Origin: Pseudomonadota bacterium | GTDB lineage: Bacteria; Pseudomonadota; Gammaproteobacteria; Xanthomonadales; Rhodanobacteraceae | DNA: 56,390 bases | Reading direction: 5' to 3' | Assembly (NCBI GenBank): GCA_021827205.1 | Contig: JAKAWV010000020.1 | Location: 1 to 56,390, forward strand | In this document: positions 21,928-34,218 of the stretch, one piece after another | How positions within the stretch are numbered: position 1 is the stretch's first letter | Layout of the letters: the number at the start of each line of letters is the position of its first letter | Notes under the pieces: model-generated | The model's database searches: none | Told to the model about the DNA's origin: nothing | Seen by the model: the letters and a program-made list of their open reading frames with translations, nothing else | Program-made: the position numbers and the translations under genes

Positions 21928-22476
21928 TTACTGGATCAGGCTTTGCACCATGGCCTGACTGTTCTGGTTGCTGGGATTGGCGGCGCGCACGGTGATGCGG
22001 TAAATCGGCGCGCGATTGCCGGGATAAGTGCCGGCCGCGGCCGACTCGCCGGGGCGCGTCACCGCAGGCAGTTGCTCGATCGCCACGCTCGGCACGGCCG
22101 CTGTCGCGGTGGTCGGCCAAGCCGTGGCACCGCACGTGGTCGTGCTCCAGGACGCCGGCGCCGCGCACAAAACCGGCGTGACCGGGTACTGCAATTGCAG
22201 CACCGATAATTGATTGGTCATCAAGGCGCCCTCGGCCGCGGCCAGCGCCATCTGCGCGCTGGCGGCATTGGCGGCGACGCGAATTTGCGTGGTCTGCAAA
22301 GCCATGGCCACGATCGCGGCCAGGGTGAGCACTAGCAGCATCACCAGCGCCGTGAGCAGCACAAAGCCGTCCTGCCTGCGAAATTCAGGGCCTGATGATG
22401 CACCCAAGGAAGCGCGGCCACTGCGCACCCGAGTTCCGAGTCCCGAGCCCCGAGGCCCGTTTTTCATCACGTTCAT
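21928..22476 (-). CDS. pilX: Minor pilin PilX
   Basis: A protein of 182 residues. The hydrophobic prepilin helix FVLLTALVMLLVLTLAAIVAM begins at about residue 38 after QDG. The residues before it (GPRGSGLGTRVRSGRASLG) are encoded by a short tandem repeat and make the leader much longer than usual. PilX_N and C-terminal PilX domains fit. It is expected to be part of the tip complex with PilVW, FimT and PilY1. The ATG at 22476 overlaps the pilW stop codon. A later start closer to the helix is possible. Confidence 0.87.
   Translation of the reverse strand: MNVMKNGPRGSGLGTRVRSGRASLGASSGPEFRRQDGFVLLTALVMLLVLTLAAIVAMALQTTQIRVAANAASAQMALAAAEGALMTNQLSVLQLQYPVTPVLCAAPASWSTTTCGATAWPTTATAAVPSVAIEQLPAVTRPGESAAAGTYPGNRAPIYRITVRAANPSNQNSQAMVQSLIQ
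22428..22454. repeat. Short CCCGAG tandem repeat in the pilX leader
   Basis: Four imperfect 7-8 base units built on CCCGAG (CCCGAGTT, CCGAGTC, CCGAGCC, CCGAG) lie within the first 20 codons of pilX. Similar GAGTCCC repeats are known between genes in Xanthomonadales; here it is read as protein. Confidence 0.5.
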
Positions 22477-23711
22477 AGCGTGGTGTTCCGCAGGTTGATC
22501 GTCATCACGTAGACATGGCGCAGGCGCGTGTCATTGGGCGCAGTAATCGGCGGGGGTGGATGCGGCAGGGTTATGTTCGTGCCGAGCACGCTCCAAATCG
22601 TCGGATTGCTGTTCGCCGGGACCGATCCCAACCCGCCTTCAATCAAAAAGCCAATGCGTATGCTGTTGACGATGGTCCACGGGTTGAACGGCAGGCTGGT
22701 CACGCCCGCGGGTGGATTGGCCTGCAGTGCCTGCACGCCTGCGGCGCTGAGGTACTGCGTGATCTGTCCGTTCAAGCCCACGCCATACAGCACCTGCATG
22801 TTGTCCACGCCGGGGATGAGTTCTTGCGAATTCCACTGTCCGCCCACCAGCACGGCCTGGTATAGCGCGCTCTGCCCGCCATGACCCTGGCCCACGAAGT
22901 AGGCCACCTGCTGCATGGGCGCGAGTTGCACGCCGTCCTGATACACCGGGGCGATCTGCTGGCTGACATTGCCGGCGCCGTTGTTGCCGATCGGCCCCAC
23001 CGTCACCGGATTGCTGATCGCCGTGCTGCTGGTCATCGCCGGAACGAAGATCGAACTCTTGGCGCAATCCGACACCGCCACCGCGCTGACCAGCACGCTC
23101 AGCACATTGCCGTTGGCATCGGTGAACTGGATCGGGCTGGCGTTCGGGTTGCTAGCGCCGGCGTTATACACGGTGAAGGTATTGGGCGTGGACGACTGGT
23201 CCACCAATGGCACCCCGACCGGATGCGTGCCTGGCGCTTCACCATTGAGCACCAGCACATCGCTGCCTTGTTCGGTCAGCCCGGACAGATTGCCGGTCAG
23301 CGCCGGCGTCCAGTCACCGCTGTTGCCGTCATTGGCGGCATTGAGCGCGGTGATCGCGTAATTGCCACCCGCATCGGTGCCATTGGCGTCAAAGCCGAAC
23401 ACGGGCGCGGAAAAATTGCCGCGGCTGAATACCCATGGCGTCGCCGAAGTCGAATAACTGACACGATCGCCCGCGTTGGCCAGGGTACCGCAGCCGGTGA
23501 AACCCGCGCCGCGTATCGCCGGCGAGAGGATCGCCGAGATCGCGTTGTCGGCATTCTGGATGGCACCCTGCGCCGAGGACGAACTGACCACCTGACGCTG
23601 CGCCATGAACACCGTGGCGATGCCGGCCAGCACGATCAGACCGATAGCGATGGCCACCATCAGCTCGACCAGGGAAAAGCCCAACGAGTGATTTGGAGTG
23701 CGCCGCATCAC
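22473..23711 (-). CDS. pilW: Minor pilin PilW
   Basis: A protein of 412 residues. Prepilin leader MMRRTPNHSLG precedes FSLVELMVAIAIGLIVLAGIA with Glu at +5. The long C-terminal domain, with LSPAIRGAGFTGCGT and RLRHVYVMTINLRNTTL, fits PilW family members of about 350-400 residues. It overlaps the pilV end by 4 bases and the pilX start by 4 bases, so the three are translationally coupled. It is expected to bridge other minor pilins to the tip complex. Confidence 0.9.
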   Translation of the reverse strand: MMRRTPNHSLGFSLVELMVAIAIGLIVLAGIATVFMAQRQVVSSSSAQGAIQNADNAISAILSPAIRGAGFTGCGTLANAGDRVSYSTSATPWVFSRGNFSAPVFGFDANGTDAGGNYAITALNAANDGNSGDWTPALTGNLSGLTEQGSDVLVLNGEAPGTHPVGVPLVDQSSTPNTFTVYNAGASNPNASPIQFTDANGNVLSVLVSAVAVSDCAKSSIFVPAMTSSTAISNPVTVGPIGNNGAGNVSQQIAPVYQDGVQLAPMQQVAYFVGQGHGGQSALYQAVLVGGQWNSQELIPGVDNMQVLYGVGLNGQITQYLSAAGVQALQANPPAGVTSLPFNPWTIVNSIRIGFLIEGGLGSVPANSNPTIWSVLGTNITLPHPPPPITAPNDTRLRHVYVMTINLRNTTL

Positions 23712-24223
23712 ATCACCGTCGTCAGGGTGAAGGTTTTCATCGTGGCAAGCCCGGTGTTCTGCTGCTGCCCACTCTTCTTGAACTGCTCGATGGCCTGCAC
23801 GCCGGGCGCATCGCTCCAGCTCACGCTGACCGTCACATTGATGGTGCCATTGCTGGATGCCGCGCTGGCAATCGTGCCGCTGCCGCTGGGCAGTTCATCG
23901 AGACTCGAGGTCCACTGGCTCGTGTCGAACGCGGCCATCTGTTGCGCCGTGCAGGTGTTGCCGGCGCCCTGGCAGGCCGGCGGACTGGCCGGTGTGCCGG
24001 TGTAAGTGCCGATGTAATTGCCCGCCTGCGTGCCCTGCAGGTTGGCGCGCATGCGATCGAGCATGTCGTAAGCGGTTTGCACAGCCTGCTGCTGGATGTA
24101 GCTGGAGGTGTCGGCCTTGTGCACCGTGACCAGCAACGCCGCCACGCCGAGCATGCCCAGCGAGACGATGACCACCGCCACCAGCACTTCGAGCAGGGTG
24201 AAACCGAATGATTGGCGCTTCAT
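23708..24223 (-). CDS. pilV: Minor pilin PilV
   Basis: A protein of 171 residues from the ATG at 24223, which has GAGGA eight bases upstream; an ATG at 24238 overlapping the fimT stop (ATGA) is the alternative. Prepilin leader MKRQSFG is followed by FTLLEVLVAVVIVSLGMLGVAAL. The C-terminal region shows YDMLDRMRANLQG, typical of PilV. It is between fimT and pilW in one operon and is likely part of the primed tip complex. Confidence 0.9.
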   Translation of the reverse strand: MKRQSFGFTLLEVLVAVVIVSLGMLGVAALLVTVHKADTSSYIQQQAVQTAYDMLDRMRANLQGTQAGNYIGTYTGTPASPPACQGAGNTCTAQQMAAFDTSQWTSSLDELPSGSGTIASAASSNGTINVTVSVSWSDAPGVQAIEQFKKSGQQQNTGLATMKTFTLTTVM

Positions 24224-24234
24224 CTTGGACGTCC

Positions 24235-24795
24235 TCATGGACAGCTCAACGCACTGCCATCGGGCGCCGAGCCGCGCGTGGCGGAGATCTGCACGTAGCC
24301 CGCGGTATTCACCTCGATGGCCTGCGCAGAACTGGCGCCGCGTGCGTCGCACACCGTGAGCGTGCCGCCGCCCGAAGCCAGCCCGTGGCCGTTGAAGGTG
24401 ATCGACGCAGTGCCCGACGAGGTGATGCTGATCCGCTCGTCGGCAGGCAACGTGTAAGTCGAAAGCTGGATCGGCACGGTGCTGCCCGGCGCAGTGTAGT
24501 AAACCATCCAGGCCGTGCCATTGGCGGCGCTGCCGAAGCTGGTCTGGCAAGTCGTGCCGGGCGCCTGCCCCGAGCTGGCGGGCGGACTCACCGGGCACAC
24601 ACTCACCGGCATGTTGCGGCTGAGCGCGGTATTGCGCGCATAGCTCAGCGCGCCGGACAGGTTGCTGACCACATCATCCTGGCGACTGTTCATCAACAGG
24701 GTACGGAAGCTGGGTATGGCGAAAGTCAAAACGATCGCCACGATGATCAGCACGACCATCAGTTCCAGCAGAGTGAATCCGCGCGCGTTGCGCAT
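24235..24795 (-). CDS. fimT: Minor pilin FimT/GspH-type
   Basis: A protein of 186 residues from the ATG at 24795; the longer frame to 24957 would bury the leader and is rejected. Leader MRNARG precedes FTLLELMVVLIIVAIVLTFA with Glu at +5. A GspH domain follows (LSGALSYARNTALSRNMPVSVC, ending GSAPDGSALSCP) with a Cys pair. It is the first gene of the minor pilin operon. FimT in some relatives binds DNA during natural transformation, a role that cannot be judged here without the C-terminal alignment. Confidence 0.88.
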   Translation of the reverse strand: MRNARGFTLLELMVVLIIVAIVLTFAIPSFRTLLMNSRQDDVVSNLSGALSYARNTALSRNMPVSVCPVSPPASSGQAPGTTCQTSFGSAANGTAWMVYYTAPGSTVPIQLSTYTLPADERISITSSGTASITFNGHGLASGGGTLTVCDARGASSAQAIEVNTAGYVQISATRGSAPDGSALSCP

Positions 24796-25033
24796 TGCCG
24801 CCCCCTGTCGCGGCCGACAGCCGCACGCTGAGATTGAACCCGGCGCGGCGCAAAAGCCCATGCCTATCCGATCAATGGCGGCGTTCAGCCGACGGATGGC
24901 AGGGATGCACGGCCTGAGTGGGATGGCGATCACGCTTTGACGCACCCCCGCAGGCAACGATCAAGGCTTGCAGCAGCCATCGCCCGTCTTGATGGACACC
25001 CCACGCTCAATCACCCACTGTTAGACTGCTGTC

Positions 25034-25494: not shown

Positions 25495-28400
25495 TCACGC
25501 CTCGTGCTGCAGCGCGGCAACACCAAAATGCTTCAGATACCCGAAGTACAGCAACGGGATCACCACCAGCGTCAACAGCGTGGACACCAGGATGCCGAAC
25601 ACCATGGATACCGCGAGGCCCTGGAAGATCGGGTCGCCGAGGATGAAGAACGCGCCGATCATGGCCGCCAGCGCGGTGAGGATGATGGGTTTTGCGCGTA
25701 CCGCACCGGCCTCGATCACGGCCTCCTCCAGCGGCTTGCCGGCCAGCACCGAATGGTTGATGAAGTCCACCAGCAGGATCGAATTGCGCACGATGATGCC
25801 GGCCAACGCGATCATGCCGATCATCGAGGTCGCGGTGAACTGCGCGTGCAGCAGCCAGTGCCCGGGCATCACGCCGATCACGGTCAGCGGAATCGGCGCC
25901 ATGATCACCAGCGGCACCAGGTAGCTGCGGAATTGCCCCACCACCAGCAGGTAGATCAGGACCAGGCCCATCGAATAGGCCAGGCCCATGTCGCGGAAAG
26001 TCTCGTACGTGGTGGTCCACTCGCCGCCCCACTTGATCGAGAAGCTGTCGCCGTTCTGCGGCGGCCCGATGAAGTGCTGGGCAAGGTGATGCCCGTCGAA
26101 GGTGCGCTGGCTGATCTCGCTGACCAGCATGAACATGCCGTACAGCGCGCTGTCCACGTGCCCGGCGTCATCACCGGTGACGTAGGTCACGGGCAGCAGA
26201 TCCTGGTGATAGATCGCGTCCGACCACGGCGTGGTCTTGACGCGCACCACCTCGGACAAGGGAATCAACTGCCCCGCCTGCGAGCGCACGCGCAGCGTGA
26301 GCACCGAATCCAGCGAGCCCAGATCGGACTGCGGCAGGCGCAGCATCACCGGGATCGCGTGCTTGGCGTTGCCATCCTGCAGATACGTGGCATCGATGCC
26401 GCCCAGACCCGCGGCGATGGCATCGACGATCTGCTGCTGGCTCACGCCCAGCGTCGCGGCGCGCGTGCGATCGATCACCAGCAACTTGCGCTGCGCTCGG
26501 GGATTCTCGACGGTGGTGTTCACATCGACGATGTTGCGCGTGTGCTCGAACAGGTGCTCGACGTCCAGCGCGATTTTCTCTTGCACCGCGTAGCTCGGGC
26601 CGTAGATCTCGGCCACGATCGGCGCCATTGCCGGCGGTCCGGGCGGGATCTCGACCACCTGCAGATGCGCGTGGAAGCGCGCGGCGATGGCCGCCAGCGC
26701 CGGACGTACCGCGCGCGCGATCTGGTGACTCTGCCGTGAGCGCTGATCCTTGCCCACCAGATTCACCTGGATCATGCCCTGGTAAGGCATGGTGCGCATG
26801 AAGTACTGGCGTACCAGCCCGTTGAAATCGATCGGCGCGGGCGTGCCGGCGTACAACTGGTAGTTGACGACCTCGGGCACCTTGGCCAGCACCTGGCCCA
26901 TGTCGGTGAGCACGCGGTTGGTCTGCTCCAGGGTGGAACCCTCGGGCATGTTCAACACCACCTGGAACTCGGATTTGTTGTCGAACGGCAGCATCTTCAG
27001 GATCACCGCCTTGATGCCGACCAGGCTCACCGAGAGCAGTACCAGCAAGCCGATCGCCGCGAACAGACGGCGCCGGTTGCGTTTGGCCTTCTCGCCCAGC
27101 AGGAACGGCGACATCACGCGATTGAACAGCGCGTAGAGCTTCTGATCGAGCCTGGACTCGGCGGCGTGGCCGGGACCGGCGCCGTGCTCATCGTGGTGCT
27201 GCGCCAGCTTCTTGAGCAGGTGATAGGCCATCCACGGCGTGACCACGAAGGCCACTGCCAGTGAGATCAGCATGCCGACGCTGGCGTTGATCGGGATCGG
27301 CCGCATGTACGGCCCCATCAGTCCGCCGACGAAGGCCATCGGCAGCAGCGCCGCGATCACGGTGAAGGTGGCCAGGATGGTCGGCCCGCCCACTTCGTCC
27401 ACGGCGATGGGGATGGCCTCGCCGAGCTTCTTGTTGCCCATGGCCATGTGCCGGTGGATGTTTTCCACCACCACGATGGCGTCGTCGACGAGGATGCCGA
27501 TGGAGAAAATCAGTGCGAACAACGATACGCGATTGATGGTGAAGCCGATCGCCCACGACGCGAACAAGGTGATCGCCAGGGTGATGACCACCGCGACGCC
27601 AACCACGATGGCCTCGCGCCAGCCCAGCGCCAGCAGCATCAGCAGCACCACCGACACCGTCGCCAGCAGCAGATGCTGCATCAGCTCGGTGGCCTTGGCG
27701 TCGGCGCTGCGGCCGTAATCGCGGGTCACCGCCACGTGTACGTCGGCGGGGATCTCGATGTTCCTGAGCTGGGTCAGGCGCGCGCGGATGGCGTCGGTGA
27801 TGTCGATCGCGTTCTCGCCCTGCTTCTTGGCGATGGCGATGGTCACCGCCGGCGCCAGCCCGGTGGCCGGCCCGCCCATGCCCACCGGTGTGCCGTAGGC
27901 GGCATAGCGGGTGGGGTAATTGGCGCCGCCGACGACATCGGCGACATCGGACATGTAGATGGGTTTGCCGCCGGCCAGCCCGATGACCAGGTTGTGCACT
28001 TCGTTGGCGTCCATCAACAGCGTGCCGGCCTTGACCGGAAAATCGGTGTTGCGGCTGTACTCGTCGCCGGCATCGGTGGCCACGTTGGCCGCCTTCAGCG
28101 CATTGCTCAGGTCGGTGACGGTGAGGTTGTAGGCAGCCAGCTTGCCGGGATCGAGCTTGACCAGTACCGCGCGCTGCGGCGCGCCGACGGTGTACACGTC
28201 GCGCGTGCCGGGCACGGTCTTGAGCGTGGTTTCCAGGGTGCGCGCGACCTCGGCCAGTTGCACCGGGTTGGCGTGATCGGACCACAGCGTGAGGGTCATG
28301 ATGGGCACGTCGTTGATGCCCATCGGCTTGATGATCGGCTGGCCCACGCCAACGCCGGGCGGTACCCAGTCGAGGTTCGAATAAACCTTGTTGTAGAGGC

Positions 28401-28746
28401 GGATGATCGCCTCCTGGCGCGGCACACCGACGCGGAACTCGGCGGTGATCACCGCCACGCCGGGACGGCTGACCGAGTACACGTGCTTGATGCCGCGAAT
28501 CTCGGAGACTTTCTGCTCCAGCGGAAACGCGACCAGATTTTCCACATCGCGCACGTCCGCGCCGGCGAACGGCACCGTGATCGTGGCCATGGTGACCTCG
28601 ATCTGCGGGTCTTCCTCGCGCGGGGTGATGATGACCGCGGCAAGGCCCAGCAGCAGGCCCACGATCGCCAGCAACGGGGTGATCTGCGAGGCCTGGAACG
28701 CGCGCGCGATACGTCCGGAAATGCCGAGCGGCTTGGTACCGGCCAT
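25495..28746 (-). CDS. RND-family efflux transporter permease
   Basis: A protein of 1083 residues, the full RND length, with two membrane halves and two large periplasmic loops. The N-terminal helix is followed by TVPFAGADVRDVENLVAFPLEQ. TM4 contains the proton-relay pair D421-D422 in GILVDDAIVVVENIHRH. The second half has IMAPIPLTVIGVMPGHWLLHA and SMIGMIALAGIIVRNSILLVDF. It is the last gene of a minus-strand operon with an adaptor (4 bases upstream), a DUF2892 protein and sulfide:quinone reductase. No outer-membrane channel gene is nearby. Substrate unknown; its context links it to reactive sulfur species rather than classical drugs. Confidence 0.92.
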   Translation of the reverse strand: MAGTKPLGISGRIARAFQASQITPLLAIVGLLLGLAAVIITPREEDPQIEVTMATITVPFAGADVRDVENLVAFPLEQKVSEIRGIKHVYSVSRPGVAVITAEFRVGVPRQEAIIRLYNKVYSNLDWVPPGVGVGQPIIKPMGINDVPIMTLTLWSDHANPVQLAEVARTLETTLKTVPGTRDVYTVGAPQRAVLVKLDPGKLAAYNLTVTDLSNALKAANVATDAGDEYSRNTDFPVKAGTLLMDANEVHNLVIGLAGGKPIYMSDVADVVGGANYPTRYAAYGTPVGMGGPATGLAPAVTIAIAKKQGENAIDITDAIRARLTQLRNIEIPADVHVAVTRDYGRSADAKATELMQHLLLATVSVVLLMLLALGWREAIVVGVAVVITLAITLFASWAIGFTINRVSLFALIFSIGILVDDAIVVVENIHRHMAMGNKKLGEAIPIAVDEVGGPTILATFTVIAALLPMAFVGGLMGPYMRPIPINASVGMLISLAVAFVVTPWMAYHLLKKLAQHHDEHGAGPGHAAESRLDQKLYALFNRVMSPFLLGEKAKRNRRRLFAAIGLLVLLSVSLVGIKAVILKMLPFDNKSEFQVVLNMPEGSTLEQTNRVLTDMGQVLAKVPEVVNYQLYAGTPAPIDFNGLVRQYFMRTMPYQGMIQVNLVGKDQRSRQSHQIARAVRPALAAIAARFHAHLQVVEIPPGPPAMAPIVAEIYGPSYAVQEKIALDVEHLFEHTRNIVDVNTTVENPRAQRKLLVIDRTRAATLGVSQQQIVDAIAAGLGGIDATYLQDGNAKHAIPVMLRLPQSDLGSLDSVLTLRVRSQAGQLIPLSEVVRVKTTPWSDAIYHQDLLPVTYVTGDDAGHVDSALYGMFMLVSEISQRTFDGHHLAQHFIGPPQNGDSFSIKWGGEWTTTYETFRDMGLAYSMGLVLIYLLVVGQFRSYLVPLVIMAPIPLTVIGVMPGHWLLHAQFTATSMIGMIALAGIIVRNSILLVDFINHSVLAGKPLEEAVIEAGAVRAKPIILTALAAMIGAFFILGDPIFQGLAVSMVFGILVSTLLTLVVIPLLYFGYLKHFGVAALQHEA

Positions 28747-28750
28747 GCGC

Positions 28751-29839
28751 TCAGGTCCCCTGGTCGTTCGACTTGCGGTGCTGCTTGACCAGCCAGGCCA
28801 CCGCCTGCAGTGGATTGCTGGCGATGGTTTCGCCCGCCGCCAACCCCGAGATCACTTCGACCTGATCGCCGAAATGCGCGCCCAGCCGCACCTGGCGCAG
28901 CGCGATCTCGCCGTCGCGGAATACATACACGCCGGTGATCTCGCCCCGCTGCAGCAAAGCCGAATCAGGCACCAGCAGGCGTGGTCGCGAACCAATCATG
29001 AAAGCCACCTGCACCACCTCACCGGGATTCAGGCCGGTATCGGCCGGCGGCAATTCCAGGCGCACGGTGAAGGTGTGCGTGGTCGGATCGGCATACGGAA
29101 ACACGATGACCTTGGCTGCCTCGATGCGCTTGCGTCCGCCATCGAGCACCACCCAGGCGCGCGCGTACTTGCGAATGGCATCGACATCGCTTTGCGGCAC
29201 CTGCGCCTCGACGCGCAATTGGTTCAACGAGATGCCGGCGATCAGCGGCTGCCCCGGCTGCACCGCCTCGCCGACCTGCACGAAGCGCTGGGTGACGATA
29301 CCCGCGTAGGGTGCGCGCACCACGGTGTAATCCTGACTCTGCTGCGCCGCGCGCGCGTTCTGCCGCGCGGCATCCAGCGCGGCCTTGGCCGAATCACGCG
29401 TGGCCAGCGTCTGATCGTATTGCGCCTTGGACACCAGCTTGCGCGCGTAGACTTGCGCGATGCGCGTGTACTGCGCCTCGGCATCGGTATAGGCCGCCTG
29501 CGCGGAACGCACCCGTGCCGCCGCGGCACGCGCCGCGGAGCCTTGCTCGACATCGGTGAAGCGTGCCACCACCGCACCCTTGGGCACGTAATCATTGACA
29601 TCAAACGGCAGCTCGACCACGCGCCCGGCGGTCTGCGCCGACAGCGTGGCGCGATTGACCGCCTGCACCGTGCCATCCCACACGCGATCGCGCGGCGTGA
29701 CCTGCTCGGACACGGTCAAAACCGGTATCGGCGCCACGGCATTCGCCACCGATGCCGGCGCCTGCGGATGGCTGCAAGCAGTCAGCAGCAGCACCGGCGT
29801 CACAGCGGCACCGAGCAGAAGGCCGCGCAGGCTTGGCAT
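28751..29839 (-). CDS. RND efflux periplasmic adaptor (membrane fusion lipoprotein)
   Basis: A protein of 362 residues. The signal peptide ends in lipobox LTAC (Cys at about residue 22), so it is probably a lipoprotein in the inner membrane facing the periplasm. It has the usual adaptor layout: lipoyl half (LSAQTAGRVVELPFDVND), a helical hairpin (about 95-165), second lipoyl half (VVRAPYAGIVTQRFVQVGEAV), then beta-barrel and membrane-proximal domains. The ATG at 29839 is chosen over a long upstream open frame that is only noncoding overlap. It pairs with the RND permease 4 bases downstream. Confidence 0.91.
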   Translation of the reverse strand: MPSLRGLLLGAAVTPVLLLTACSHPQAPASVANAVAPIPVLTVSEQVTPRDRVWDGTVQAVNRATLSAQTAGRVVELPFDVNDYVPKGAVVARFTDVEQGSAARAAAARVRSAQAAYTDAEAQYTRIAQVYARKLVSKAQYDQTLATRDSAKAALDAARQNARAAQQSQDYTVVRAPYAGIVTQRFVQVGEAVQPGQPLIAGISLNQLRVEAQVPQSDVDAIRKYARAWVVLDGGRKRIEAAKVIVFPYADPTTHTFTVRLELPPADTGLNPGEVVQVAFMIGSRPRLLVPDSALLQRGEITGVYVFRDGEIALRQVRLGAHFGDQVEVISGLAAGETIASNPLQAVAWLVKQHRKSNDQGT

Positions 29840-29850
29840 GGGCACGCGCC

Positions 29851-30054
29851 TCAACGGAACGCGCAACCGGCCGGCAGGCCGAGCTTGCGCAACACCATCG
29901 CCAGCGGGCAGAAGCTGGTGAACGCGGACTGCAGCAGGTTCAGCCCGACGAAGGCCGCCAGCAGCATCCACAGCGGAGATACCAGCCAGGCCAGCAGCAC
30001 GCTGATCAGGATCATGCTGCCGGCAAATGCAAAAACGATGCGATCGATGTTCAT
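29851..30054 (-). CDS. DUF2892 (YgaP-type) inner-membrane protein
   Basis: A protein of 67 residues from ATG 30054. Residues 1-18 (MNIDRIVFAFAGSMILIS) and the rest form two membrane helices, with SFCPLAMVLRKLGL near the C-terminus; the CP motif is typical of DUF2892. The same domain is fused to rhodanese in YgaP and is found beside sulfide-oxidising enzymes, including bigR operons. It lies between sqr and the RND adaptor, 11 bases before the latter. It may handle sulfane sulfur at the membrane; function is inferred. Confidence 0.85.
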   Translation of the reverse strand: MNIDRIVFAFAGSMILISVLLAWLVSPLWMLLAAFVGLNLLQSAFTSFCPLAMVLRKLGLPAGCAFR

Positions 30055-30159
30055 GGTGGACACGGCTCCATAGTGACGGGTGAATCGGTATCGGGCGCGA
30101 GGCATGGCGCCGGCGCCAACGTGAAACGCTCGCGCGAGCTCGATGCCGCGCGCGAGTAC

Positions 30160-31443
30160 TCAGGGTTTCGACGTGTTCTTCAGGCGCTCGATGCCCAACG
30201 CCTTGAGTACGTATTTTTCGTAGATGGGATCGGTATTGCCGGTCTTCATCTTGTTCATGAAATATTTCTCGAAGGCCACCTTGGCAAGATGCACCCACTT
30301 GCCGACCTTGGCCCAGGTGACGTTGCGCGGCGGGATCTGCGGCAGCGCCACGAAGGCCGCGCCGGTGTCGCCCATGTCGGCCAGGCAGATGGCATTCCAC
30401 GTAGCCACCTGATCGGCCGGCTTGCCCGCGATCTCGCTGACGATGTTGTGCACGATCGCGCCGACCATCGACTCGATCATGTAGCCGGTCTTGGGCGCGC
30501 CGGTGGGTACCGGAGTCGTCTCCACCGGCGGGATCGCCACGCATACGCCGGCCGAGAAGATATTGTGATATTTGGGACTGCGCTGGTGCTTGTCGATGAG
30601 CACGAAACCACGCGGATTGCACAGGCCTTCCACCGCCGCCACCGCATCGACACCCTTGAACGCCGGCATCACCATGCTGAAGGCGCTGGGGATGCGGTGC
30701 TCCTGCAGCAACTGGCCCTTGCCGTCGAGTTCGTTGACCACGACCTCGGTGGCCGTGACCTCGACGACCTTTGCGTTGCAGATCCACTTGATGTGGCGCT
30801 GGCGGAACTCGGACTCGATCAACCCCTTCGAGTCGCCCACGCCGCCCAAGCCCATGTGCCCCACGTATGGTTCGGGGGTGACATAGGTGATCGGCACGCG
30901 GTCACGGATCTTGCGCTTGCGCAGGTCGGTTTCGATGATGGTCGCGAACTCGTAAGCCGGACCGAAACAACTGGTGCCAGGCGCCGCGCCAATCACCACC
31001 GGGCCGGGATTCTTGACGAATTCCTGATAGGCATTCCATGTCGCCTCGGCGTGCGGTGTGGTGCAGATCGAATGCGAATGCTGGTCCGGAGCCAGCCCCG
31101 GGATCTCGTCGAACGCCAGCTTGGGACCGGTGCAGATCACCAGATAGTCGTAGGCCAGCTCCTTGCCGCTGCGCGTGACCAGCACATTTTGCGCGGCGCG
31201 GATCTCGGTGGCCGGCTCGTCCACGAATTCGATCTTCTTGCGCGCCAGACAGGGCTTCACCTCCAGCATCACGTCGTCGCGTTTGCGCCAGCCCACGCCC
31301 ACCCATGGGTTGGAGGGTGTGAACGAAAATCCCGGGCCATCACCCACCACGGTGATGGCGTGGTCGCCACCCAGCCCCGCATGCAGCTCGTACGCCGCAG
31401 TCATGCCGCCGATGCCGGCGCCCAGCACAATGATCTTTGCCAT
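30160..31443 (-). CDS. sqr: Sulfide:quinone oxidoreductase, type I
   Basis: A protein of 427 residues from ATG 31443 with GGGAGGG just upstream. The FAD-binding fold begins MAKIIVLGAGIGGMTAAYEL. Three cysteines line up with the catalytic set of Acidithiobacillus-type SQR (known Cys128, Cys160, Cys356): here Cys127 in HSICTTP, Cys159 in GTSCFGPAYEF and Cys353 in NAICLADMGD. A C-terminal amphipathic region (VHLAKVAFEKYFMNKMKTG) fits membrane attachment. It oxidises sulfide to polysulfide/persulfide and feeds electrons to quinone. It is first in the operon sqr-DUF2892-adaptor-RND and divergent from an SqrR-like regulator. Confidence 0.93.
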   Translation of the reverse strand: MAKIIVLGAGIGGMTAAYELHAGLGGDHAITVVGDGPGFSFTPSNPWVGVGWRKRDDVMLEVKPCLARKKIEFVDEPATEIRAAQNVLVTRSGKELAYDYLVICTGPKLAFDEIPGLAPDQHSHSICTTPHAEATWNAYQEFVKNPGPVVIGAAPGTSCFGPAYEFATIIETDLRKRKIRDRVPITYVTPEPYVGHMGLGGVGDSKGLIESEFRQRHIKWICNAKVVEVTATEVVVNELDGKGQLLQEHRIPSAFSMVMPAFKGVDAVAAVEGLCNPRGFVLIDKHQRSPKYHNIFSAGVCVAIPPVETTPVPTGAPKTGYMIESMVGAIVHNIVSEIAGKPADQVATWNAICLADMGDTGAAFVALPQIPPRNVTWAKVGKWVHLAKVAFEKYFMNKMKTGNTDPIYEKYVLKALGIERLKNTSKP

Positions 31444-31500
31444 GGTCCCTCCCGCTCTCCGGTCGTTGCGTGCGTCATCGCGCACGAGGCTCGATTCGTA

Positions 31501-31541
31501 ATATTAGATATATATTATTTAGTTTTCATGAATATTGTCAA
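31501..31541 (-). promoter_or_regulatory. sqr operon promoter with AT-rich operator
   Basis: Read on the minus strand, TTGACA (31541-31536), an 18-base spacer and TAATAT (31517-31512) make a strong sigma-70 promoter about 70 bases upstream of sqr. The -10 zone lies in an AT-rich imperfect palindrome (AATAT-N7-ATATT, 31500-31518) that contrasts with the GC-rich surroundings and resembles the AT-rich sites bound by BigR-type ArsR repressors. The operator role is inferred. Confidence 0.6.
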
Positions 31542-31624
31542 CGGTCCAGCCGTGTCGCATGAGAGTACCCCTGTTGCCGGCAAGCGGGCACACTATCCAC
31601 AGCAGATAATCCGCAGGAGTCGAC

Positions 31625-32008
31625 ATGACCGCGTCGCGCAGCAATCGCAACAGCGTTGCCTTGGACAACAACTTTGACTTCGAGGGCATGCAGCGCAATG
31701 CCGATGACGCCGCGCGCCTGCTGCGCGCCCTGGCCAACCCCCAGCGCCTGCGCATCCTGTGCCTGCTGGTCGGCGGCGAGATGTCCGTCGGAAACATCAA
31801 CGCGCGTATCGATCTCAGCCAGTCCGCGCTGTCGCAGCACCTGGCGGTGTTGCGCGAAGAGCATCTGGTGAGCACGCGTCGCGAAGCGCAAACCATCCAT
31901 TACGCGCTGCTCAACGGCCCCGCGCAGGTCATCATCGAAACCCTGCACGGCATCTACTGCAGCCCCAAGAAAAGTCGTGGCAACACACAGCGCGTGTGCG
32001 CGCCCTGA
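31625..32008 (+). CDS. ArsR-family persulfide-responsive repressor (SqrR/BigR-like)
   Basis: A protein of 127 residues from ATG 31625 with GCAGGAG upstream. The winged HTH includes LLRALANPQRLRILCLLVGG and SQSALSQHLAVLREEHLV. Two cysteines, Cys46 in RILCLL and Cys112 in GIYCSP, are 66 residues apart, exactly the spacing of the sensing pair in SqrR (Cys41/Cys107) and BigR (Cys42/Cys108), which forms a polysulfide bridge. No classical metal-binding CxC motif is present. It is divergent from the sqr operon across a 180-base promoter region, so it likely represses that operon until persulfides accumulate. Regulation is inferred from the family and the gene layout. Confidence 0.87.
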   Translation: MTASRSNRNSVALDNNFDFEGMQRNADDAARLLRALANPQRLRILCLLVGGEMSVGNINARIDLSQSALSQHLAVLREEHLVSTRREAQTIHYALLNGPAQVIIETLHGIYCSPKKSRGNTQRVCAP

Positions 32009-32018
32009 GCGCGCGGGT

Positions 32019-32333
32019 TCAGGCGCAGGAAAATCCCGGTGTCAGCACGATGGCCTGCTCGCGCTCGCGCTTGAACGCCGCGCCAATGCGACGCATGCGT
32101 TCGAAGGAATCCACCAGCTCGCGCGCATGGCGCACCAGTTCGCGGCCCGCCGGCGTGACACGCACGCCGCCGCGGTTGCGCTCGAAACACTCCGCGCCCA
32201 GATAACCCTCCAGCTTGCGCAACTGGATGCTCAGGGTTGACTGGGTGACGTGGCAACGACGCGCGGCCTCATGGAAGTTCAGGCAGTCCGCGACGGCGAT
32301 CAGGTAACGGAAATCACGGATCGTCAAGGGCAC
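32019..32333 (-). CDS. Truncated LysR-family protein (DNA-binding domain only, OxyR-like)
   Basis: A protein of 104 residues. Residues 1-62 form a complete LysR HTH with TIRDFRYLIAVADCLNFHEA and CHVTQSTLSIQLRKLEGYLG, most like OxyR/CysB-type regulators. The linker helix follows (ELVRHARELVDSFERMR), and then the protein stops; the 200-residue effector domain is missing. Downstream is the convergent end of the ArsR gene, 10 bases away, with no remains of the missing part. It is either a decayed regulator or a stand-alone DNA-binding protein. It is divergent from the MetX-family gene, a usual LysR target position. Confidence 0.72.
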   Translation of the reverse strand: MPLTIRDFRYLIAVADCLNFHEAARRCHVTQSTLSIQLRKLEGYLGAECFERNRGGVRVTPAGRELVRHARELVDSFERMRRIGAAFKREREQAIVLTPGFSCA

Positions 32334-32477: not shown

Positions 32478-33641
32478 ATGGCCGACGCGCGTCGTTATCA
32501 CCGCCTGCCCTCGCCGTTTCGCATGAAGCGCGGCGGTGAATTGATTGGCGCCCACCTGGCCTACGAAACGTGGGGCACGCTCTCGCCGCACGCCGACAAT
32601 GCCGTGCTCATCCTGCCCGGGCTCTCGCCCAGCGCGCACGCGGCATCCGGCCCGCATGACTCATCCGATGGCTGGTGGGAAGCGATCATCGGTCCCGGCA
32701 AGGCCATCGACACCGAACGCTGGTTCGTCATTTGCGTCAACTCGCTGGGCAGTTGCAAAGGTTCCACCGGCCCGGCCTCGCACGATCCGACCAGTGGCCG
32801 GCCCTACGCCATCGAATTTCCCGAACTCACCTTGGAGGATGCCGCCAACGCCAACCAATGCCTGATTGATGCGCTGGGCATCGCGCGTCTGGCTTGCCTG
32901 GTGGGCTGCTCGATGGGTGGCATGACCACCTTGGCGCAGATGCTGCTGCATCCAAACTGCACGCGCGCGCACATCAGCATTTCGACCGCGCCGCAGGCGC
33001 AGCCGTTCGCCATCGCCATTCGCTCGCTGCAACGCGAGGCTATCCGCCTTGATCCGAACTGGAATAACGGCGCCTACGACGATACGCATTACCCCGAGGC
33101 CGGCATGCGCATCGCGCGCAAGCTGGGTGTGATCACGTATCGATCAGCGCTGGAGTGGAGCGGCCGCTTCAGTCGCATCCGCCTCGACAGCGGTGCGCGC
33201 GACGAAGACCCCTTTGCCTTCGAGTTCGCCGTGGAGTCGTATCTCGAAGCACACGCGCGGCGTTTCGTGCGCACCTACGACCCCAACAGTTACCTGTACC
33301 TCAGCCGCGCCAGCGATTGGTTCGACATCGCCGAATACGGCGGCGGCAGCGTGGCCGCCGGGCTCAAGAAAATCTGCATCGAGAACGCGCTGGTGATCGG
33401 CGTGGATACCGATATCCTGTTTCCCATCGAGCAGCAGAAGGCCATTGCCGACGGCCTCGCCGAGGCCGGCGCCAAGGTCGATTTCGTGGCGCTGGATTCT
33501 CCGCAAGGCCACGACGCGTTCCTCGTCGATACCGATCGCTTCGGCGCCGAGATACGCCGCTTTCTCGACACCCTCGACACCACCGGCAGCGTCGCCAGCA
33601 GTGTCGCCCCAGCGCCTGCGGAGCAGGCCCGCCATGACTGA
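32478..33641 (+). CDS. metX: Serine (or homoserine) O-succinyltransferase, MetX family
   Basis: A protein of 387 residues of the alpha/beta-hydrolase MetX family: HRLPSPFRMKRGGELIGAHL, AYETWGTL, nucleophile Ser in GCSMGGMTTLAQ, catalytic Asp in GVDTDILFP and His in QGHDAFLVD. The N-terminal half and the segment LSPSAHAA follow the Xanthomonas enzymes that were shown to acylate L-serine with succinyl-CoA rather than homoserine. The product would feed cysteine synthesis. The next gene is cysteine dioxygenase, overlapping by 8 bases, so a cysteine role is more likely than a methionine role. Substrate specificity is inferred from subfamily resemblance. Confidence 0.87.
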   Translation: MADARRYHRLPSPFRMKRGGELIGAHLAYETWGTLSPHADNAVLILPGLSPSAHAASGPHDSSDGWWEAIIGPGKAIDTERWFVICVNSLGSCKGSTGPASHDPTSGRPYAIEFPELTLEDAANANQCLIDALGIARLACLVGCSMGGMTTLAQMLLHPNCTRAHISISTAPQAQPFAIAIRSLQREAIRLDPNWNNGAYDDTHYPEAGMRIARKLGVITYRSALEWSGRFSRIRLDSGARDEDPFAFEFAVESYLEAHARRFVRTYDPNSYLYLSRASDWFDIAEYGGGSVAAGLKKICIENALVIGVDTDILFPIEQQKAIADGLAEAGAKVDFVALDSPQGHDAFLVDTDRFGAEIRRFLDTLDTTGSVASSVAPAPAEQARHD

Positions 33642-34218
33642 TGCAGTGAGCCCTATCTGTCAGTCACTGATCGATTGCGTCGATGCCGCGCTCGGCGCCA
33701 ACGACACCGAGGCGCTGACCGCGCGCCTGCGCAACGGTCTGTGTCAGCTCATGCGCGATCAGCGCTTGCAACTGCCCGCCGCGATCCTCACCCCGCTGGG
33801 TGATCGCTATGCGCGGCGCGAGTTGTATCGCAGCACGCGCCACGTCTACAGCATCGTGGCGATGACCTGGGGACCGGGCCAGGGCACCGGCATCCACGAT
33901 CACGCCGGCCTGTGGTGCGTCGAGGGCGTCTGGCAGGGCCAGTTGCAAATCACCCGTTACGCGCTGCGTGCGCACGATGCCGCAGGCTGGCGCTTCGACG
34001 CCGAAACAGCCTTCATCGCCGGCACCGGTTCGGCCGGCAGTCTGATCCCGCCGCACGAGCACCACGCCATCCGCAATCCCAGCAGCAGCGCGGTGGCGAT
34101 CAGCCTGCACGTGTACGCCGAGCCCATCACCTGCTGTGGCGTGTACGAGCCGCAGGCCGGCGCGCCCGGCTATTACCAGCGTCGCGAACGGCAATTGTCT
34201 CTCGACCCGATCGACTGA
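33634..34218 (+). CDS. Cysteine dioxygenase (type I)
   Basis: A protein of 194 residues with the cupin metal site of thiol dioxygenases: His88 and His90 in GIHDHAG and His144 in HHAIRN. The Ser157-His159-Tyr161 triad is in SLHVYAEP. Cys95 is five residues after His90, matching the Cys that crosslinks to Tyr in mammalian CDO; many bacterial enzymes have Gly there. Arg61 in RYARREL matches the substrate-carboxylate Arg of cysteine-specific enzymes. It oxidises cysteine to cysteine sulfinate. Overlapping the O-succinyltransferase gene by 8 bases, it pairs cysteine synthesis and breakdown in one transcript. Confidence 0.9.
   Translation: MTDAVSPICQSLIDCVDAALGANDTEALTARLRNGLCQLMRDQRLQLPAAILTPLGDRYARRELYRSTRHVYSIVAMTWGPGQGTGIHDHAGLWCVEGVWQGQLQITRYALRAHDAAGWRFDAETAFIAGTGSAGSLIPPHEHHAIRNPSSSAVAISLHVYAEPITCCGVYEPQAGAPGYYQRRERQLSLDPID

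What the first reader, a model, noticed from the sequence alone, without database searches (positions are those of the whole stretch)
25495..32008. Persulfide-sensing regulator facing a sulfide:quinone reductase operon that includes an RND efflux pump
The ArsR-type protein has Cys46 and Cys112, 66 residues apart, as in SqrR and BigR, and faces an operon of type I SQR (Cys127/159/353), a DUF2892 protein, an RND adaptor lipoprotein and an RND permease with 105, 11 and 4 base gaps. SQR and DUF2892 in BigR/SqrR regulons are established; a complete RND pump pair in such an operon suggests export of a sulfur compound (polysulfide, persulfide or a toxic sulfur adduct). The strong TTGACA/TAATAT promoter is embedded in an AT-rich palindrome.
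Basis: partly seen in the sequence, partly recalled or inferred. Interest (0 to 1): 0.78.

Follow-up and report, generated by a model that had tools for sequence, protein, structure and literature searches.

The report
Sulfur-stress operon with efflux pump
A bacterial gene cluster that appears to be switched on by reactive sulfur carries a sulfide-oxidising enzyme together with an efflux pump; comparison with other genomes suggests that this type of pump belongs to the reactive-sulfur response, although what it pumps is still unknown.

Summary
In detail: ArsR (Cys46/Cys112), SQR, a YgaP-like membrane protein (DUF2892), RND adaptor and RND permease are real, with the stated cysteines, gaps and promoter. 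In 53 same-family loci ArsR is adjacent in 50 and DUF2892 in 52, but SQR in only 40, with 9 gains or losses on a 49-row tree. The core is ArsR-DUF2892-pump, so the pump cannot serve SQR's product alone. The 'palindrome' is a conserved operator (CTAAWWWAG-N6-CTAAWWWAG) that fits a published HlyU site and is unique in this genome. Outside the family most related pumps have no adjacent ArsR, yet 26 of 52 carry a palindrome with the same TTAG-N6-CTAA core. In those genomes it also precedes rhodanese, DUF2892, sulfur-globule-protein, TolC and SQR genes (22 of 58 other sites read). The pump clade thus seems to belong to a reactive-sulfur regulon, in cis or in trans. Not wholly new: a sulfide-induced SQR-RND operon (Azospira, 2017) and RND genes beside such regulators (2025) are in print. 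What the pump exports is unknown; polysulfide or another hydrophobic sulfur compound is my best guess. The regulator is closest to HlyU and misses the BigR cut-off.

The parts
31625..32008 (+). ArsR/SmtB-family regulator of the reactive-sulfur-sensing (HlyU/BigR/SqrR/YgaV) type, Cys46 and Cys112, recognition helix SQSALSQHLA
   Evidence: HTH_5; best PDB match HlyU; both Cys kept in 47 of 47 same-family ArsR neighbours examined; the only one of 7 HTH_5 hits of its genome with both Cys
31499..31522 (-). operator: two half-sites CTAAATAAT-ATATAT-CTAATATTA overlapping the -10 box
   Evidence: score 15/18; only place in the genome with up to 1 mismatch; same half-site and register as the published HlyU operator oligo
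31512..31541 (-). sigma-70-like promoter of the operon, TTGACA (31541-31536), 18 bp, TAATAT (31517-31512)
   Evidence: TTGAC lies within 36 bp upstream of the operator in 24 of 39 family regions
30160..31443 (-). sulfide:quinone reductase (type I), Cys127/159/353
   Evidence: phmmer against A. ferrooxidans SQR structures, E 1.7e-159; Cys positions
29851..30054 (-). DUF2892 / YgaP-like transmembrane protein; the 84-aa ORF opens at 30105, and Cys66 is counted from there
   Evidence: PF11127, 46.6 bits against a 25.3 cut-off; this Cys is invariant in 69 of 69 aligned sequences
28751..29842 (-). RND periplasmic adaptor (lipoprotein)
   Evidence: TIGR01730 over its cut-off; single Cys23 in an LTAC lipobox
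25495..28746 (-). RND permease, HAE-like (Asp421-Asp422 pair), no cysteine
   Evidence: PF00873; motif conservation; nearest solved relatives 8zxs/7cz9 and MexK

Best explanation
A reactive-sulfur (persulfide/polysulfide) stress operon. The reduced ArsR dimer sits on the CTAAWWWAG-N6-CTAAWWWAG operator over the -10 box and represses the divergent operon. When sulfane sulfur rises, Cys46 and Cys112 become bridged by sulfur, the repressor leaves, and SQR, the YgaP-type membrane protein and the RND pair are made. SQR removes sulfide. The membrane protein with its invariant cysteine handles or binds sulfane sulfur at the inner membrane. The RND pump, with a TolC-type outer-membrane channel encoded elsewhere, expels a hydrophobic sulfur-derived compound (polysulfide, organic persulfide or an adduct) from the membrane or periplasm. 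Shown here: genes, operator conservation, co-occurrence, and unlinked pump loci that carry the operator core. Inferred from characterised homologues: sulfur bridging and derepression. Inferred and untested: the substrate and the role of the DUF2892 protein.
For: ArsR adjacent in 50 of 53 same-family loci and DUF2892 in 52 of 53, both Cys in 47 of 47 examined; operator score >=15/18 in 39 of 52 regions, HlyU oligo 16/18, single place in the genome. The same regulator type with DUF2892, rhodanese or SQR stands beside RND pumps in at least five further branches of the permease tree, including two distant RND lineages (38-46% identity). In L091 (G107) the SQR-DUF2892-ArsR set carries a different, 40%-identical RND with TolC. 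Outside the family 26 of 52 loci without an adjacent two-Cys ArsR have TATATTAG-N6-CTAATATA upstream (3 of 2080 shuffles; 0 of 419 other windows). Of 58 other sites of this palindrome read in those genomes, 22 precede a rhodanese (8), DUF2892 (7), sulfur globule protein (4), TolC-family (2) or type I SQR (1) gene. OsmC, Blh-like dioxygenase and cytochrome bd genes recur beside family loci. Published: a SQR-RND operon highly expressed under H2S with a Bar-seq signal, whose deletion does not alter the sulfide oxidation rate (PMC5358917, passages), which fits detoxification rather than oxidation.
Against: No expression, binding or transport data for this organism. 49 of 60 clade loci outside the family have no ArsR, DUF2892 or SQR nearby, and 26 of 52 lack the palindrome at 13/16. 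None of the 28 two-Cys ArsR loci fetched from such genomes has the palindrome at 13/16 or more within 1.5 kb, so that these regulators bind it is not shown. 36 of 58 other palindrome sites are not next to one of the five gene types named, many being next to unrelated genes such as priA-like, sigma-70, MFS or nucleoside-transporter genes. The permease lacks Cys, but so do most other members of clade A, so this is no signature. One family member (L061) has the operon without an adjacent ArsR. No outer-membrane partner is in the window operon.
Confidence: 0.58

Rival explanations
1. The RND pair is a general pump for amphiphilic toxicants (quinones, lipid products, xenobiotics) that has been placed under the reactive-sulfur sensor because sulfane sulfur signals redox or envelope stress; its substrate is not a sulfur compound.
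For: HAE-like permease with multidrug pumps as nearest solved relatives; the pump is kept without SQR in 12 loci; many clade members sit in LysR/PerM or TolC contexts without sulfur genes; papers on MarR-type regulators that respond to sulfane sulfur appear in the search listing (not opened).
Against: Pairing with DUF2892, rhodanese, SQR and OsmC in several separate branches, and an operator core shared with rhodanese, DUF2892 and sulfur globule protein genes.
Confidence: 0.28
2. The pump exports metal-sulfide or metal-thiol complexes formed under sulfide, as the Azospira authors suggested for RND pumps raised under H2S.
For: Suggested in PMC5358917 (passages).
Against: Permease is HAE-like (Asp-Asp in TM4) and scores 232 bits against a 701 cut-off for the CusA/CzcA family. 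None of the ten recurrent neighbour clusters scanned with Pfam is a metal gene, but most of the 60 clusters listed were not scanned.
Confidence: 0.1
3. Chance adjacency of an unrelated RND pair behind an SQR operon.
For: RND pairs are common; 49 of 60 clade loci outside the family show no such neighbours.
Against: 43 of 45 same-family genomes with SQR also have this pump, against 13 of 102 without SQR (two of the 13 by gene fragments); Fisher 5e-23, not corrected for kinship. Conservation across 53 loci and replacement by another RND lineage in L091.
Confidence: 0.02

Closest known systems
Azospira suillum PS operon Dsui_3440-3443 (PMC5358917, mBio 2017; passages read)
   Same: SQR, RND membrane-fusion protein and efflux permease plus a protein of unknown function in one operon; highly expressed under H2S-oxidising conditions and flagged by Bar-seq (sign of the fitness effect not seen)
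   Different: Order differs (as numbered: unknown, permease, SQR, adaptor); 'ArsR' does not occur in the main text; whether its permease is of this clade was not tested here (sequence not fetched)
Sulfane-sulfur-responsive ArsR regulators near RND genes (PMC12423496, Mol Microbiol 2025; section 2.1 and passages read, its Figure S2 and Table S1 not seen)
   Same: Two-Cys ArsR regulators whose neighbourhoods include sqr, pdo, rhd and RND efflux pumps
   Different: In section 2.1 no operator, RND clade or test of SQR dependence; DUF2892 and YgaP do not occur in the main text
E. coli ygaVP (PMC9774250; passages read)
   Same: Two-Cys ArsR repressing ygaP; bound over the promoter, DNA binding lost after Na2S; the window DUF2892 protein has the membrane domain that Pfam names after YgaP (PF11127)
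   Different: YgaP is described as a rhodanese; no RND in the text; the paper names an SqrR-like ATTC-N8-GAAT site, found in 0 of the 58 regions scanned here
V. cholerae HlyU (PMC10509353; passages read)
   Same: Closest solved relative (98 bits); same SQSALSQHLA recognition helix in the alignment; its operator oligo fits the motif at 16/18
   Different: Described as a haemolysin transcription regulator; RND does not occur in the main text
BigR of Xylella/Agrobacterium (PMC5823870: start of abstract and one passage) and Acinetobacter (PMC7315123: passages)
   Same: Two-Cys ArsR, response to sulfide/polysulfide, persulfide dioxygenase in the operon (Blh-like genes stand beside some family loci)
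   Different: RND does not occur in either main text; the window operon has no Blh; NCBIfam BigR cut-off not met

Membership tests
Reactive-sulfur-sensing ArsR (HlyU/BigR/SqrR/YgaV type) | ArsR winged-helix domain | tested here: met
   PF01022 50.3 bits against 22
Reactive-sulfur-sensing ArsR (HlyU/BigR/SqrR/YgaV type) | two conserved Cys 66 residues apart | tested here: met
   Cys46/Cys112; kept in 47 of 47 family neighbours examined; Cys50/Cys116 of sHdrR, 66 apart, in PMC12423496
Reactive-sulfur-sensing ArsR (HlyU/BigR/SqrR/YgaV type) | release from DNA on persulfide/polysulfide | not testable with these tools
   needs EMSA or anisotropy
BigR proper (NCBIfam NF040642) | equivalog score cut-off 155 bits | tested here: not met
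   93.8 bits
SqrR-type operator ATTC-N8-GAAT | motif in the ArsR-operon intergenic region | tested here: not met
   0 of 58 regions, window included
Type I sulfide:quinone reductase | three catalytic Cys and close similarity to A. ferrooxidans SQR | tested here: met
   alignment; Cys127/159/353. That A. ferrooxidans SQR is called type I is recalled
Type I sulfide:quinone reductase | sulfide-dependent quinone reduction | not testable with these tools
   enzyme assay needed
YgaP-like membrane protein (PF11127/DUF2892) | Pfam gathering score | tested here: met
   46.6 against 25.3
RND permease, HAE (drug-type) class | ACR_tran and paired Asp in TM4 | tested here: met
   515.9 bits; Asp421-Asp422 in 131 of 131 aligned permeases
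RND permease, HAE (drug-type) class | score over a curated NCBIfam RND subfamily cut-off | tested here: not met
   467 against 1250 at best; all 16 families listed lie below their cut-offs
RND permease, heavy-metal (CusA/CzcA) class | TIGR00914 cut-off | tested here: not met
   232 against 701

The most novel reading that the evidence does not exclude
A large clade of RND pumps across Gammaproteobacteria and some other Pseudomonadota is a dedicated exporter of reactive sulfur (polysulfide/persulfide or adducts), perhaps feeding extracellular sulfur deposition, run by two-Cys ArsR repressors through a shared TTAG-N6-CTAA operator that also controls rhodanese, YgaP-type, sulfur-globule-protein, TolC and SQR genes; the pump, not SQR, is the constant output of the response.
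Probability: 0.43. Interest if true: 0.77.

Novelty: new member of a known kind. Interest (0 to 1): 0.57.

Why it matters
How cells get rid of excess sulfane sulfur other than by oxidising it is poorly known to me; in one review that I searched (PMC9774590) the terms RND, efflux and export do not occur. If this pump clade exports reactive sulfur, it names the exporter, its likely regulator and its operator, and makes the question testable in culturable relatives. It would also bear on how sulfide or persulfide exposure could alter tolerance to toxic compounds through RND pumps. Even if the substrate is something else, the operator gives a marker for finding a reactive-sulfur regulon in many genomes.

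Tried and rejected
Cysteine poverty of the permease as a signature of reactive-sulfur export: rejected, other clade-A pumps are equally poor in Cys (median 0 in both). Arg987 where CmeB has Lys: not special, MexK has Arg there too and 131 of 131 aligned permeases do. SqrR-type operator ATTC-N8-GAAT: in 0 of 58 regions. E. coli ygaV promoter primer as an independent operator match: 13/18, reached by 2882 of 20000 shuffles, so uninformative. A perfect palindrome at the promoter: in a plain scan the best inverted repeat of the window region lay elsewhere; the signal is the repeated half-site. The family operator in plasmid relatives: present in Azospirillum (L251, 17/18, 0 of 500 shuffles), not in L248, L249, L250 or Vibrio sp. 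HDW18 (L253). Literature searches for RND with SQR, persulfide or such regulators; relevant finds PMC12423496 and PMC5358917. I do not claim that the operator or the DUF2892 link is absent from print beyond these ten searches of an open-access library.

Limits. The Fisher test ignores kinship. The operator consensus was drawn from the loci in which it is then counted; the HlyU oligo, the own-genome search and the out-of-family palindrome are the independent checks. The TATATTAG form was itself seen before it was counted. The 26 genomes searched for the palindrome were chosen because their pump has it, so pump sites inflate 116 forward hits against 22 of the reversed control. I read 66 of these 116 (8 pump sites, 58 others): the listing was cut and some listed sites were not fetched; no control sites were read, so the 22 of 58 has no matched null. 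The DUF2892 null is biased, since most of those loci were fetched for their operator. The operators beside ArsR genes were picked as best of a whole locus, without a null. The permease tree is a quick one (SH-aLRT, LG+G4), and 10 'no SQR' rows need 9 changes (gain or loss not told apart). Loci L093-L106 include contigs already held among L038-L092 and were not counted.
Full report
WHAT IS THERE. The window (contig C38 of a 3.04-Mb, 43-contig genome) holds a divergent pair of transcription units. On the plus strand lies an ArsR regulator, 31625-32008 (127 aa; Cys 46, 112, 125). On the minus strand run SQR (30160-31443), a DUF2892 protein (29851-30054), an RND adaptor (28751-29842) and an RND permease (25495-28746). 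Pfam, NCBIfam and PDB comparisons agree with these names. The three SQR cysteines align with those of A. ferrooxidans SQR. The closest solved relative of the regulator is HlyU (98 bits), ahead of BigR (74), NolR (72), YgaV (70) and entries 6o8k-6o8o, which I recall as SqrR (68). It misses the curated BigR cut-off (93.8 against 155 bits). It is the only one of seven ArsR-type hits in its genome with both cysteines.

NAME OF THE HOST. Its nearest named relatives in the contig collection are MAGs called Rhodanobacter sp. (permease 95% identical) and Mizugakiibacter sp. (73%).

CONSERVATION IN THE FAMILY. Among 147 genomes of the same family, adaptor hits fall into a clade at 42-94% identity (54 genomes, own included, plus two gene fragments) and, after a gap, other adaptors at 26-37%. 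Stretches around the 53 clade loci other than the window's were fetched (two further stretches, L091 and L092, hold other RNDs). ArsR is adjacent in 50, DUF2892 in 52, the adaptor in all 53, and SQR in 40. Of the three loci without ArsR two end at a contig edge (L040, L090); L061 is a true exception. Both cysteines are kept in 47 of 47 ArsR neighbours examined. Twelve loci have ArsR, DUF2892 and pump but no SQR; in one of these (L041) short SQR-like pieces remain, and one genome (G128, L071) has its SQR on another contig. On the permease tree SQR presence needs 9 changes for 10 'no' rows of 49, so the gene has come or gone many times while the pump stayed. Genome-wide, SQR is found in 45 of 147 genomes, 43 of which have this pump; 11 genomes have the pump and no SQR. 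Of the two with SQR but not this pump, G107 carries the SQR-DUF2892-ArsR set with a 40%-identical RND of another lineage plus TolC (L091). G083 has SQR without DUF2892, ArsR or RND detected in its 18-kb stretch (L245). The 2x2 table gives Fisher p 5e-23, not corrected for kinship.

THE OPERATOR. The AT-rich element before the operon is part of a conserved motif of two half-sites, CTAAWWWAG-N6-CTAAWWWAG. 39 of 52 regions (window and L091 included) score at least 15 of 18; 2 of 5200 shuffles do. TTGAC lies within 36 bp upstream of the site in 24 of those 39, so that the first half-site covers the -10 box, as in the window. The motif with up to one mismatch occurs once in the whole genome, here. 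The 31-base operator oligo used for V. cholerae HlyU in PMC10509353 (passage) fits the motif at 16 of 18 in the same register; 5 of 20000 shuffles do as well. The recognition helix, SQSALSQHLA in the window protein, is identical in HlyU in the alignment.

OUTSIDE THE FAMILY. The permease clade (52% identity or more) is widespread: searches list about 140 hits outside the family in 369 class and 398 phylum genomes. I fetched 60 of these plus 20 more distant ones at 38-46% (L117 came). Of the 60, 49 have no ArsR, DUF2892 or SQR in the stretch; 7 have an ArsR at the threshold used and 10 a DUF2892. Of the 20 distant ones, 5 have both ArsR and DUF2892 (L238, L240, L241-L243), with SQR in three. 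On a permease tree of 133 rows the family forms one clade (100*), and two-Cys ArsR neighbours also occur in at least five other branches. The two-Cys label needs 8 changes; the group 'none', nearly its complement, also needs 8 where shuffles give a mean of 43.9. Six of 52 plasmid records with a match were read from annotation: Sphingomonas sp. MM-1 pISP1, Novosphingobium, Paracoccus pantotrophus and Azospirillum have ArsR and DUF2892 beside the pump, the first three also an FAD/NAD(P) oxidoreductase that I did not test as SQR; Vibrio sp. HDW18 has only DUF2892; Shinella has neither.

THE PUMP IN TRANS. Of 52 clade-A loci without an adjacent two-Cys ArsR, 26 have a palindrome TATATTAG-N6-CTAATATA (at least 13 of 16) within 500 bp upstream of the adaptor, against 3 of 2080 shuffles, 0 of 419 other windows of the same loci, and 0 of 15 clade-B loci. 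Its core TTAG-N6-CTAA is that of the family operator. Forms of it also stand beside ArsR or pump genes in loci with an adjacent two-Cys ArsR (L175, L203, L210, L217, L220, L223, no null). An ArsR search of 47 such genomes, with and without the palindrome, found matches in 41; of 30 ArsR loci fetched, 28 have both cysteines, five of them directly followed by a DUF2892 gene. In the 26 genomes the palindrome (up to 2 mismatches) occurs 116 times against 22 for the reversed pattern, pump sites included. I read 66 sites, 8 of them at pumps. Of the 58 others, 8 stand before a rhodanese (one followed by a YgaP-type domain), 7 before a DUF2892 gene, 4 before a gene matching Pfam's sulphur globule protein family, 2 before a TolC-family outer-membrane gene and one before a type I SQR with all three cysteines, 61% identical to the window's. 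That makes 22 of 58. Others stand before thioredoxin-like genes (three, two of them sharing the site with a sulphur globule gene), a Redoxin, YceI, cytochrome c, two Rieske proteins and a sulfate permease. The rest are near unrelated genes or inside ORFs. Against this reading: none of the 28 two-Cys ArsR loci fetched has the palindrome at 13/16 or more, and no control sites were read.

HOW IT PROBABLY WORKS. Shown: gene set, conservation, operator position over the promoter. From characterised homologues: reduced two-Cys ArsR proteins bind DNA and let go when the cysteines are bridged by sulfur (PMC12423496 section 2.1; PMC10509353 and PMC9774250 passages). Inferred: the operon is derepressed by sulfane sulfur. 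SQR removes sulfide; the YgaP-type protein, with an invariant Cys in 69 of 69 aligned sequences, works on sulfane sulfur at the membrane. The HAE-like RND pump, with a TolC partner from elsewhere (none on this contig among 14 PF02321 domain hits), removes a hydrophobic sulfur-derived compound. Two TolC genes under the palindrome in other genomes fit an outer-membrane partner made in step with the pump. Since the pump is kept without SQR, its substrate cannot be only SQR's product. The link to sulphur globule proteins suggests, without showing it, that export could feed extracellular sulfur. The alternative that sulfane sulfur is merely the signal for a general pump is not excluded.

AGAINST WHAT IS KNOWN. 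An operon of SQR and RND genes, highly expressed under H2S and with a Bar-seq signal, is described in Azospira suillum, where deleting the operon did not change the sulfide oxidation rate; the authors suggest export of metal sulfides (PMC5358917, passages). RND pumps near two-Cys ArsR regulators are mentioned in PMC12423496 (its tables not seen). The E. coli ygaVP pair already joins this regulator type to YgaP. The window locus is therefore a new member of a known kind. What I did not find in print in ten searches is the repeated loss of SQR from the operon, the operator, and the extension of the operator core to unlinked pumps.

Noticed in passing
window 32478-34218: Directly beyond the ArsR lie an alpha/beta hydrolase that looks like a homoserine acyltransferase (metX-like, name recalled) and a cysteine dioxygenase (PF05995): further sulfur metabolism; the metX-like gene is syntenic in seven fetched relatives (L038, L039, L041-L045).
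   Followed up: partly
window 32019-32333: 104-aa ORF with only the LysR HTH domain between ArsR and the metX-like gene, with similar ORFs at the same place in L038, L039, L041, L043 and L044.
   Followed up: no
window 22476-24813: Type IV pilus minor pilin-like genes (PilW, GspH) downstream of the pump.
   Followed up: no
L091 (G107:C6:114000-132000): Same SQR-DUF2892-ArsR set as the window but with a TolC and a 40%-identical RND from another lineage: replacement of the pump within a conserved operon.
   Followed up: partly
L085, L086, L087, L088: A second, only 24-26% identical SQR-like flavoprotein follows the permease; for the two scanned (L085, L088) the best NCBIfam hit is a type III SQR model, far below cut-off.
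   Followed up: partly
13 family loci, e.g. L051, L057, L068, L076: An OsmC-like gene (PF02566 for the one scanned) follows the permease; cytochrome bd subunit I or Blh-like sulfur dioxygenase genes lie close by in several loci.
   Followed up: partly
G000:C6:139267-140780: The window's own genome has a Blh-like dioxygenase (51% identical to the L072 one) near a rhodanese, on another contig than this operon.
   Followed up: no
L248 (Sphingomonas sp. MM-1 pISP1): The pump with ArsR, rhodanese, DUF2892, TolC and an FAD/NAD(P) oxidoreductase lies beside cydAB on a plasmid typed as conjugative.
   Followed up: no
L307, L345, L363, L379: Sulphur globule protein genes (PF17228) right behind the TATATTAG-N6-CTAATATA palindrome in four genomes; in L363 and L379 a thioredoxin gene diverges from the same site.
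   Followed up: partly
L290, L361, L365, L372, L375: The palindrome also precedes Redoxin, Rieske, YceI and sulfate permease genes: possible further members of the regulon.
   Followed up: partly
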